Source: Thiohalorhabdus sp. Cl-TMA (lineage in GTDB: Bacteria > Pseudomonadota > Gammaproteobacteria > Thiohalorhabdales > Thiohalorhabdaceae). Taken from it: DNA of 64,000 bases. A model generated the notes under the pieces. It was given only the letters and a program-made list of their open reading frames with translations. It was not told the DNA's origin and did not search any database. The stretch is from contig NZ_JBGUAW010000006.1 of the NCBI RefSeq assembly GCF_041821045.1, forward strand, positions 62,001 through 126,000. The letters run 5' to 3'. The translations under genes and the position numbers were made by a program. Shown piece by piece: positions 11,046 through 32,660 of the stretch; position 1 is the first letter of the stretch; every line of letters begins with the position of its first letter.

Positions 11046-11080
11046 TCACCGCATTGGCCTTTATATCGTTCCAAGATGAA

Positions 11081-11119
11081 AAAGGCGCCCATCCCTCTCG
11101 GGATGGGCGCCTTTCTTTC
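11081..11119. terminator. Bidirectional terminator between DUF3280 gene and TonB receptor
   Basis: A perfect 15-bp stem, AAAGGCGCCCATCCC with its complement around loop TCTC, ends in TTTCTTT on the plus strand and in an A-rich 5' flank (T-run on the minus strand). It serves the two convergent units. Confidence 0.92.
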
Positions 11120-11157
11120 CTGGCTGTGCCACAATTGCAACAGCCGGTGCGAACGGC

Positions 11158-17372: not shown

Positions 17373-17885
17373 TTAGGAGTGCGCGGCGAAGGGATGGTCG
17401 CTGCCCTTGCGGGAGGAGAGCACGTCCTGGACCTTGGGCTCGCCGGCCATCGCGTTCTTGATGGACTGCTTGGTGGCCTCGTAGTTCCAGTCCTGGATCT
17501 TGTTGTCGTCCTCGGCCTCCCAGTGGATGAACACACCCACGCTCAGGAACAGGTCGTCGGCCTGGTCCTGGGGAATGGTGCCGTCTTCCACGCAATCCGC
17601 CACGGCCATGGCGACGCCGCGCTGGGCGGGGCCGAACATCTGGGCCGCCTGCTTCTCGCCCTTGATGGTCACCTTGTTGAACATGGCGGTGGCCGGCTTG
17701 ACCATCAGGTTCGGGGCCACGATGGCCAGCAGGCCGTTGTGCCCTTCCTTCTGGTTGGTCAGGGTCTGGCAGAACATGGTCTCGGCGGCGGTGCCGGCCG
17801 GGCCCATGATCAGGTCGATGTGCGCCAGCTCGTTGGTGTCGCCTACCAGGGCTTCACCCACCATCGTCTTTTTAATCTCGGCCAT
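17373..17885 (-). CDS. fae: Formaldehyde-activating enzyme Fae
   Basis: 170 residues. Fae condenses formaldehyde with tetrahydromethanopterin to methylene-H4MPT, the entry to the H4MPT oxidation pathway. The family signature is clear: [20 protein letters not shown] with catalytic His22, [41 protein letters not shown] and the terminal HPFAAHS. ATG 17885 with GAGAGGAG upstream fits the family's N-terminus; longer versions do not. It is preceded by a sigma-54-type promoter. Confidence 0.96.
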
Positions 17886-25671: not shown

Positions 25672-25949
25672 CCTTCCGCCTCCCGGCGGCAATCCACCAG
25701 CTCGGCCCCCCACTCCGCCAGCAGCTCCCGACGAATTCCGGAATCGTGCGGCACCGCCAGAAGCCGCTCGCGCTCCACCTGGATTAGGCTCCGCTGCCAG
25801 CCATCGGCATGGAGCGCGCATTCCACGCGGACCTCCCAGATCCCGTCACGCGGCTCCACCTGATACAGGTAGACCGCGATCCCCAGCTCTTCGAGCAGGT
25901 CTTCGGTGACCGCCCGGGCCCGTCCCAGCTCGCCGCCTGAAATGCGCAA
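25668..25949 (-). CDS. Small hypothetical protein (93 aa)
   Basis: An acidic/basic soluble protein with no signal or membrane segment. ELGIAVYLYQVEPRDGIWEVRVECALHADGW suggests alternating beta strands. It starts with TTG six bases after AGGAG. It follows the pentapeptide-repeat gene by 33 bases on the same strand, so the two may be co-transcribed. I do not recognise the family. Confidence 0.5.
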   Translation of the reverse strand: MRISGGELGRARAVTEDLLEELGIAVYLYQVEPRDGIWEVRVECALHADGWQRSLIQVERERLLAVPHDSGIRRELLAEWGAELVDCRREAEG

Positions 25950-25982
25950 TGGAAGCTCCTGTCTATTGCGCCGATACCGGCC

Positions 25983-26819
25983 TCATTCCCCACTTTCCGG
26001 GAAATGCGCACGTTCGCGCTCGCGGGCCTGATCAACGCCGCGTAGGCTGGACCAGTCGCGGGACTCGCGAAAATCCGTGCCGCCCAACCGGGCCTTGGTG
26101 ACGTTGGCGCGGCTGACCACGGCATCCTGGAAGCTGGCTCCCGAAAGGTCTGCCCAGGACAGATCGGCCCCCCGGGCGTTCACCCCGGCCAGATTGGCGA
26201 ACCGCAGATCCGCGTGCCGGAGCTCCGCATTCTCCATGTTGGCTCCGCTAAGGTTCGCATCATAGAAAATCGCGTTCATCATTCCCATGGACTGGTTCTT
26301 CATATCCGCGCCGGCCCGGACACCGGCCAGGTTGGCGTTGGAGAAATCGGCATCCGAGAAATCACCGATGACCCGGGCCTTCCGGAGATCGGCATTGCGG
26401 AAGCTCGCCTCCGGGGCCTGGGCGCTGAACAGGCTGGCCTCGGAGAGATCGGCGCCCGAGAAATCCGCTCCGTACAGCGCGGAAATATCCAGGTTGGCTC
26501 CGGAGAGATCCGCCCCGGAGAGGTTCGCCCCTTCCAGGTTCACGCTCCGCAGATTGGCTCCCCGGAAATCCACGCCGGAGAGATCCAGGCCGGAGAGATC
26601 CGAATCCACGAAAGCCTTCGAGGATCCGGATTCCGCCAGCGCCTCGACCACCGCTTCCCGTGTCCATTTTCCCGCTTCGGCCGCCCCGGATAACCGTACG
26701 GCCTGCGGCCCTATCCCTAAGAAGAGCGCGGCCAGCACCAACAGCCAGCGCGCTCCATTCCGCCACTTCCCTGCAACACCCATGGCCAGATCCTTCGGGC
26801 CCCGCGGGCATTCCGCCAT
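25983..26819 (-). CDS. Exported pentapeptide-repeat protein
   Basis: 278 residues. After a hydrophobic signal (WLLVLAALFLGIG), residues about 70-255 are A(D/N)LXX pentapeptide repeats (GANLRSVNLEGANLSGADLS and on), which fold as a right-handed quadrilateral beta-helix. The repeat run is interrupted once by KNQSMGMMNAIFY. Most pentapeptide proteins with known function are cytoplasmic; this one is probably periplasmic or anchored and its function is unknown. Confidence 0.85.
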   Translation of the reverse strand: MAECPRGPKDLAMGVAGKWRNGARWLLVLAALFLGIGPQAVRLSGAAEAGKWTREAVVEALAESGSSKAFVDSDLSGLDLSGVDFRGANLRSVNLEGANLSGADLSGANLDISALYGADFSGADLSEASLFSAQAPEASFRNADLRKARVIGDFSDADFSNANLAGVRAGADMKNQSMGMMNAIFYDANLSGANMENAELRHADLRFANLAGVNARGADLSWADLSGASFQDAVVSRANVTKARLGGTDFRESRDWSSLRGVDQARERERAHFPESGE

Positions 26820-26980
26820 TCCGGCCGGGAGCTCAACGACCGGAGAAAAGCTTTCGGTGGCAGCCCGCCTGGGACCCCGTGGTTTTCATCGTCCCCATTC
26901 CCCGTCTATACCACAGAACCGGGCCTTTTCCGCATCCCCCGCCCCACCCCGTATGCAATATTAGGCTAGGCAATCAACCA

Positions 26981-27009
26981 TTGATAATCTTAATGTGGCA
27001 ATTTATAGT
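26981..27009 (+). promoter_or_regulatory. Sigma-70 promoter of a candidate small RNA
   Basis: TTGATA (26981-26986), a 17-base spacer and TATAGT (27004-27009) form a near-consensus promoter reading into a region with no gene but two hairpins. The predicted start is near 27016. Confidence 0.7.
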
Positions 27010-27014
27010 GCTGA

Positions 27015-27147
27015 TGGATCGGTCATAGCCCCGCCGGGTTCTTCCTCCTCGATATTGGCGGGGCTGTCTTTTGCACAACGTGCAGTGCATGCCTCCGCTC
27101 CATACCCCGCCGAGCTTTCTCCTCCTTTGCCTCGGCGGGGTTTTTCT
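27015..27147 (+). ncRNA. Candidate small RNA with two anti-Shine-Dalgarno loops (CcsR-like architecture)
   Basis: A good promoter reads into two hairpins. Hairpin 1 pairs AGCCCCGCC (27027-27035) with GGCGGGGCT (27057-27065), and its loop contains CTTCCTCCTC. Hairpin 2 pairs ACCCCGCCGAG (27104-27114) with CTCGGCGGGGT (27131-27141), its loop contains TTCTCCTCCTTTG, and a TTTTTC tail makes it the terminator. Both loops mimic the anti-Shine-Dalgarno and could pair with ribosome sites of target mRNAs. Small RNAs with paired C/U-rich loops of this kind include the CcsR RNAs of Rhodobacter. No coding frame with a ribosome site lies in it. Confidence 0.6.
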
Positions 27148-27239
27148 TCCCCCCCTTCCCCCGGACGATTCCCGCTCACCCTACACTGTTCAGCAGTCCG
27201 TGGGCGCCTTTTCGTGCCGCCCGACGGGGACATGGACAC

Positions 27240-27275
27240 AAAAAAGCCCCTGATGCCCTTGCGGGCATCAGGGGC
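27240..27275 (-). terminator. Terminator of tRNA-Glu
   Basis: On the minus strand a perfect 13-bp stem GCCCCTGATGCCC with its complement, loop GCAA, is followed by TTTTTT. It lies eight bases after the tRNA. Confidence 0.93.
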
Positions 27276-32006: not shown

Positions 32007-32609
32007 ATGAGTGTGCTGGTTAACAAGCAGGCCCCCGATTTCACCGCACCCACGGTGATGCCGAACAACGAGATCCGGGAAGATTGGAGCTTTCTCAAGG
32101 AAACCGAAGGCAAGTATCGGGTCCTGTTCTTCTACCCGCTCGACTTCACCTTCGTTTGCCCCTCCGAGATCATCGCTTTCGATAATCGGGTTAAAGAGTT
32201 CGAGAAGCGCAATTGCGCCGTCGTGGCCTGCTCCATCGACTCCCATTTCACCCATCTGGCCTGGAAGAACACCTCCGTCAACGACGGCGGCATCGGCCAG
32301 GTGAACTTCCCCATGGTGGCCGACCTGACCAAGAGCATCGCCCGCGATTACGATGTGCTCGTGGACGAGTCCGTGGCCCTGCGCGGCACCTTCCTCATCG
32401 ACCGTGACGGCGTGGTGCAGCATCAGGTTGTGAACAACCTGCCTCTCGGCCGCAACATCGATGAAGCCATCCGCATGCTGGACGCCCTGCAGTTCCACGA
32501 AGAGAACGGCGAGGTCTGCCCGGCCGGCTGGCAGGAAGGCAGCACCGGTATGAAGGATACCCCCGAGGGTGTCGCTTCCTACCTGTCGGAGAACGCCGAG
32601 CAGCTGTAA
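32007..32609 (+). CDS. 2-Cys peroxiredoxin (AhpC/Tsa type)
   Basis: 200 residues. The peroxidatic cysteine lies in DFTFVCPSEI and the resolving cysteine in GEVCPAGW. It reduces hydrogen and alkyl peroxides with thioredoxin or AhpF. GAGGAGAG precedes the ATG, and a clean terminator follows, so it is a single-gene unit divergent from aroC. Confidence 0.95.
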   Translation: MSVLVNKQAPDFTAPTVMPNNEIREDWSFLKETEGKYRVLFFYPLDFTFVCPSEIIAFDNRVKEFEKRNCAVVACSIDSHFTHLAWKNTSVNDGGIGQVNFPMVADLTKSIARDYDVLVDESVALRGTFLIDRDGVVQHQVVNNLPLGRNIDEAIRMLDALQFHEENGEVCPAGWQEGSTGMKDTPEGVASYLSENAEQL

Positions 32610-32629
32610 GAGCGACTTCGTTCTCCCCG

Positions 32630-32660
32630 AAGACCGGGCCGCACGGCCCGGTCTTTTTTT
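32630..32660 (+). terminator. Rho-independent terminator after the peroxiredoxin gene
   Basis: A perfect 11-bp stem AAGACCGGGCC/GGCCCGGTCTT with loop GCAC runs into a T-tract. Confidence 0.94.

What the first reader, a model, noticed from the sequence alone, without database searches (positions are those of the whole stretch)
26981..27147. Candidate small RNA with twin anti-Shine-Dalgarno loops
A near-consensus promoter (TTGATA-17-TATAGT) reads into two hairpins whose loops contain CTTCCTCCTC and TTCTCCTCCTTTG, the second being a terminator. This is the design of CcsR-type RNAs of Rhodobacter, which have been linked to stress and C1 metabolism. Finding one in a gammaproteobacterial C1 genome is intriguing.
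Basis: partly seen in the sequence, partly recalled or inferred. Interest (0 to 1): 0.65.

Follow-up and report, generated by a model that had tools for sequence, protein, structure and literature searches.

The report
Small RNA with twin anti-ribosome-site loops
A methylotroph-type gammaproteobacterium that seems to lack the usual RNA helper protein Hfq carries a convincing gene for a ~130-base regulatory RNA whose two hairpin loops could cover the ribosome-start sites of messenger RNAs; the design is already known from other bacteria, but this RNA itself is new and may target a formaldehyde-handling gene.

Summary
A promoter (TTGATA-17-TATAGT, the only site of 10/12 or better in the window) reads into a ~131-nt intergenic unit (about 27016-27146) with two GC-rich hairpins. 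Their loops carry CCUCCUC and CUCCUCC, and the second hairpin ends in a U-tract. Twin hairpins of this kind arose in 0 of 3000 shuffles. It is most likely a free-standing small RNA that blocks ribosome-binding sites by loop pairing.

It is not a CcsR RNA: no DUF1127 gene, single copy, sigma-70-like promoter, incomplete CCUCCUCCC. Rfam gives no accepted match. No homologue was found in 368 other gammaproteobacterial genomes, two of them same-genus; G001 lacks it at the syntenic site. The design is already known in gammaproteobacteria (Xanthomonas sX13).

Two additions. Hfq was not found in any of the three genomes of the genus, so Hfq co-precipitation is the wrong test. Loop 1 is an 11-nt perfect antisense to the Shine-Dalgarno region of one of four fae genes (chance about 1-3%), so the C1 link is plausible but unproven. 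Loop 2 matches soxX over 12 nt, found post hoc.

All of this is sequence inference; no transcript has been seen.

The parts
26981..27009 (+). Promoter: -35 TTGATA (26981-26986), 17-nt spacer, -10 TATAGT (27004-27009)
   Evidence: 10 of 12 consensus positions; the only such site on either strand of the window; AT-rich patch
27016..27146 (+). Predicted small RNA, about 131 nt (start inferred 7 nt after the -10 box, end inferred in the U-tract)
   Evidence: Promoter to terminator distance; fold z -4.7; no transcript data
27025..27067 (+). Hairpin 1, 13-bp outer stem; followed by CTTTTG, possibly a weak early terminator
   Evidence: Predicted fold and hairpin scan
27042..27056 (+). Loop 1 with CCUCCUC; CUCCUCGAUAUU (27045-27056) is antisense to the fae-2 ribosome site
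   Evidence: Unpaired in the predicted fold; 11-nt Watson-Crick match plus one G-U
27072..27089 (+). Small central hairpin (UGCAC...GUGCA)
   Evidence: Predicted fold
27104..27146 (+). Hairpin 2 with U-tract: intrinsic terminator whose loop is also the second pairing site
   Evidence: 11-bp stem, TTTTCTT tail
27119..27130 (+). Loop 2 CUCCUCCUUUGC, anti-Shine-Dalgarno; 12-nt match to the soxX ribosome site
   Evidence: Unpaired in the predicted fold; match found post hoc

Best explanation
A free-standing, sigma-70-transcribed small RNA of about 131 nt. Its two very stable hairpins hold pyrimidine-rich anti-Shine-Dalgarno loops (CCUCCUC and CUCCUCC) open, and these pair in trans with purine-rich ribosome-binding sites and block translation. 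Because no Hfq was found, the pairing is expected to be Hfq-independent, as in sX13, possibly helped by a ProQ-type protein. Bases next to the anti-Shine-Dalgarno core would give target choice; the best a-priori candidate is the fae gene inside the H4MPT formaldehyde-oxidation cluster (loop 1). Shown by computation: promoter-like site, hairpins, terminator, loops open in the predicted fold, 11-nt complementarity. Inferred: that it is transcribed, that it represses, and which mRNAs it hits.
For: Unique promoter in an AT-rich patch; terminator with U-tract on the same strand and no upstream gene on that strand; fold z -4.7; twin anti-SD hairpins in 0 of 3000 shuffles, and the only such pair with a U-tract in 1.62 Mb of the genome; loops unpaired. 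Both loops bind ribosome sites more strongly than coding interiors (means -12.9 and -14.7 against -10.6 and -12.0 kcal/mol), as any anti-SD would. Loop 1 pairs with the fae-2 ribosome site over 11 nt, net about -11 kcal/mol after opening costs, the longest match of loop 1 among 492 curated start sites.
Against: No homologue anywhere searched, so neither covariation nor conservation supports it. The number of long matches to start sites is not above a null with shuffled loop flanks (loop 1, runs of 11 or more: 1 observed, 0.31 expected, 33 of 150 nulls reach it), so target specificity is weakly supported. No expression data.
Confidence: 0.62

Rival explanations
1. A real transcript, but a non-specific ribosome-site decoy: the loops mimic the 16S rRNA tail and lower translation of many strong-Shine-Dalgarno mRNAs without dedicated targets; the fae and sox matches are chance.
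For: Loop 2 contains CCUCCUU like the 16S tail; the number of long matches equals the shuffled-flank null; affinity for start sites follows the anti-SD core.
Against: The longest loop-1 match is at a gene named beforehand as a candidate (chance about 1-3%).
Confidence: 0.18
2. The minus strand is the functional one: two hairpins with GGAGGA loops that would sequester a CsrA/RsmA protein, fed by read-through from tRNA-Glu.
For: The complement of each loop contains GGA in a hairpin loop, the CsrA-binding design (sequence; design from own knowledge).
Against: No promoter-like site (best 7 of 12) and no U-tract on the minus strand; tRNA-Glu has its own strong terminator in between.
Confidence: 0.06
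3. Not a regulator: a chance promoter with tandem terminators that insulate tRNA-Glu and the pentapeptide gene, or a recently acquired, decaying fragment.
For: No conservation, absent from the syntenic place in G001.
Against: The coincidence of a unique promoter, twin anti-SD loops and a terminator; no plus-strand gene to terminate.
Confidence: 0.14

Closest known systems
sX13 of Xanthomonas (RF02232; PMC3771888)
   Same: Gammaproteobacterial, strongly structured, acts through C-rich hairpin loops on G-rich regions near translation starts, Hfq-independent
   Different: Three stem-loops with CCCC/CCCCC motifs and an unstructured 5' region; here two large hairpins with CCUCCUC/CUCCUCC. Rfam score 12.8 against 50 needed
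ar14 / NfeR1 (RF02344; PMC10746234, PMC3927594) and the cuckoo RNAs
   Same: Adjacent hairpins each showing an anti-Shine-Dalgarno motif in the loop, last hairpin a terminator, own sigma-70 promoter
   Different: Alphaproteobacterial, three hairpins with ultraconserved CCUCCUCCC; the motif here is partial. 24.8 against 58.8 bits
CcsR1-4 of Rhodobacter sphaeroides (PMC10253847)
   Same: Anti-SD loop RNAs tied to C1 metabolism and stress
   Different: Four copies processed from a DUF1127 (ccaF1) transcript under an RpoH promoter; here single copy, no DUF1127 gene, sigma-70-type promoter
RepG of Helicobacter pylori (PMC8295292)
   Same: A C/U-rich terminator loop is itself the mRNA-pairing site, like loop 2
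   Different: Targets a homopolymeric G repeat in a leader; only the terminator loop is the described pairing site
NmsRA/NmsRB of Neisseria meningitidis (PMC5362039)
   Same: Two anti-SD stretches that repress metabolic enzymes at the ribosome site
   Different: Tandem sibling RNAs; one anti-SD lies in a single-stranded linker, not a loop

Membership tests
CcsR RNAs | Co-transcribed with a DUF1127 (CcaF1) gene | tested here: not met
   PF06568 finds nothing in the genome (control E. coli rings); neighbours are a pentapeptide-repeat gene and tRNA-Glu
CcsR RNAs | Cluster of four homologous copies | tested here: not met
   One copy in the genome by DNA and covariance search
CcsR RNAs | RpoHI/RpoHII promoter | tested here: inconclusive
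   Sequence resembles a sigma-70 promoter, 10/12; no RpoH model was scored and sigma use was not measured
CcsR / cuckoo RNAs | CCUCCUCCC motif in each loop | tested here: not met
   Loops contain CCUCCUCG and UCUCCUCCU; only 7 contiguous bases of the 9-base motif each
CcsR / cuckoo RNAs | Adjacent hairpins each with an anti-SD loop | tested here: met
   Two such hairpins
ar14 / NfeR1 (RF02344) | Score at or above the Rfam gathering threshold of 58.8 bits | tested here: not met
   24.8 bits; a control region gives an unrelated family at a similar E-value
sX13 (RF02232) | Score at or above the Rfam gathering threshold of 50 bits | tested here: not met
   12.8 bits
sX13-like mode of action | Hfq-independent pairing through loops | not testable with these tools
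   Consistent with no Hfq gene found in the genus, but needs an experiment

The most novel reading that the evidence does not exclude
In a genus that has lost Hfq, one small RNA with two loops of different reach arbitrates between energy sources without that chaperone: loop 1 shuts the H4MPT formaldehyde gene fae-2 and loop 2 the thiosulfate-oxidation operon soxXYZA.
Probability: 0.1. Interest if true: 0.6.

Novelty: new member of a known kind. Interest (0 to 1): 0.36.

Why it matters
Anti-Shine-Dalgarno loop RNAs turn up in distantly related bacteria with little sequence in common beyond the loop motif, which may point to repeated invention. A case in a gammaproteobacterial genus apparently without Hfq would be a clean place to test how such RNAs choose targets when the usual chaperone is absent. 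If the fae link holds, it would be a small-RNA control point on formaldehyde oxidation.

Tried and rejected
Rfam at gathering threshold (only tRNA-Glu) and at loose threshold (ar14 24.8 bits, judged background after the G001 control). Blastn in 56 and 369 class genomes (overlapping samples, own genome included), plasmids, phages, and an exact pattern in viral contigs: no homologue. Covariance model R1, built from this one sequence, in 20 relatives: only non-significant hits, and the three read showed no such RNA; with filters off on the syntenic and nearby same-genus loci only noise. An 11-base shared stretch (GGATCGGTCAT) in the G001 intergenic region could be a remnant but is not significant. 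Linkage to the pentapeptide gene was rejected: its relative in G002 has no such RNA beside it. Short ORFs in the RNA: none convincing. The genus could not be named.

Full report
Observation. The promoter TTGATA-17-TATAGT is the only 10-of-12 match on either strand of the 64-kb window and sits in a stretch that is among the 0.07% most AT-rich. Downstream lie two GC-rich hairpins, 27025-27067 and 27104-27141, the second followed by TTTTCTT. The predicted fold is much more stable than shuffles (z -4.7), and the loop bases are open. Two CTCCTC-loop hairpins never arose in 3000 shuffles of the intergenic region. In 1.62 Mb of the same genome the only other close pair looks coding and has no U-tract. 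The two hairpins resemble each other more than shuffles do (1 of 1000), which suggests duplication of one module.

Context. Upstream is a pentapeptide-repeat gene on the minus strand, followed in the same direction by a small unknown gene; downstream is tRNA-Glu on the minus strand with its own terminator, then psd on the plus strand. No plus-strand gene precedes the hairpins, so they are not terminators of another gene, and tRNA-Glu separates them from psd. In the same-genus genome G001 the small gene, tRNA-Glu and psd are kept (78-87% DNA identity in the flanks), but the 1.3 kb with the pentapeptide gene and the RNA is replaced by about 245 bases.

Relatives. The RNA is single-copy. No homologue was found by DNA similarity in 369 class genomes including its own, in plasmids or phages, or by a covariance model built from this one sequence in 20 genomes. 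Rfam has no accepted match. With loose settings the best match is ar14, an alphaproteobacterial anti-Shine-Dalgarno RNA, full length and on the right strand, at 24.8 bits against 58.8 needed; but a control intergenic region gives an unrelated family at a similar E-value, so this is resemblance of design, not evidence of descent.

Chaperones. No Hfq gene was found in this genome or in the two others of the genus (one of them only 82% complete), while 14 of the other 17 relatives have one. HflX, usually encoded beside hfq in gammaproteobacteria (own knowledge), is also not found, though all 14 control genomes ring. Two ProQ-domain matches are present. Any pairing is therefore likely Hfq-independent, as shown for sX13 (PMC3771888).

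Targets. The genome has four fae genes. Loop 1 is perfectly complementary over 11 nt, plus a G-U pair, to the Shine-Dalgarno region of one of them, G000:C6:184377-184850, which lies near mch in what looks like an H4MPT formaldehyde-oxidation cluster. This is the longest loop-1 match among 492 curated start sites from 43% of the genome; four other matches as long or longer in the uncurated list look like miscalled starts inside coding sequence. Net energy is about -11 kcal/mol after opening both partners. Shuffling the loop flanks while keeping the core gives such a match with either of two fae sites in 47 of 5000 trials for loop 1 and 11 of 5000 for loop 2. Overall the number of long matches is not above this null. 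Loop 2 has a 12-nt match at soxX, first gene of soxXYZA, net about -13.8 kcal/mol, and an 11-nt match at an aldehyde dehydrogenase; these were found after the fact, and soxX lies outside the curated set.

Interpretation. Best reading: a free-standing small RNA that represses translation by loop pairing at ribosome sites. The opposite strand would read as GGA-loop hairpins, the CsrA-binding design, but it has no promoter-like site or U-tract. CcsR membership fails on DUF1127, copy number and exact motif (PMC10253847). The surprise of finding such a design in a gammaproteobacterium is reduced by sX13. No transcript has been observed, and function is inferred.

Noticed in passing
whole genome G000 and same-genus G001, G002: No Hfq gene found (PF17209) in any of three genomes of the genus, although most gammaproteobacterial relatives searched have it; HflX (PF13167) is also not found in the window's genome.
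   Followed up: partly
G000:C1:390897-391181 and G000:C9:110579-110728: Two ProQ-domain matches in this genome but none in the two same-genus genomes; possible stand-in RNA chaperones.
   Followed up: no
window 26973-26985: Perfect 5-bp dyad ATCAA-CCA-TTGAT overlapping the -35 box, a possible operator for the small RNA promoter.
   Followed up: no
window 25949-27271 against L112 1027-1272: Pentapeptide-repeat gene plus small RNA form a 1.3-kb segment beside tRNA-Glu that is absent from the syntenic place in G001.
   Followed up: partly
G000:C6:184377-184850, G000:C6:79388-79861 (window 17388-17861), G000:C2:434727-435200, G000:C11:62596-63084; sox genes near G000:C2:227160-230000: Four fae genes with different ribosome-site sequences, plus a soxXYZA operon: a genome with both formaldehyde (H4MPT-type) and thiosulfate oxidation genes.
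   Followed up: partly
window 11071-11134 (-) and 32580-32659 (+): Sub-threshold Rfam matches (ctRNA_p42d/STnc320 and SorX), probably background from terminator-like hairpins.
   Followed up: no
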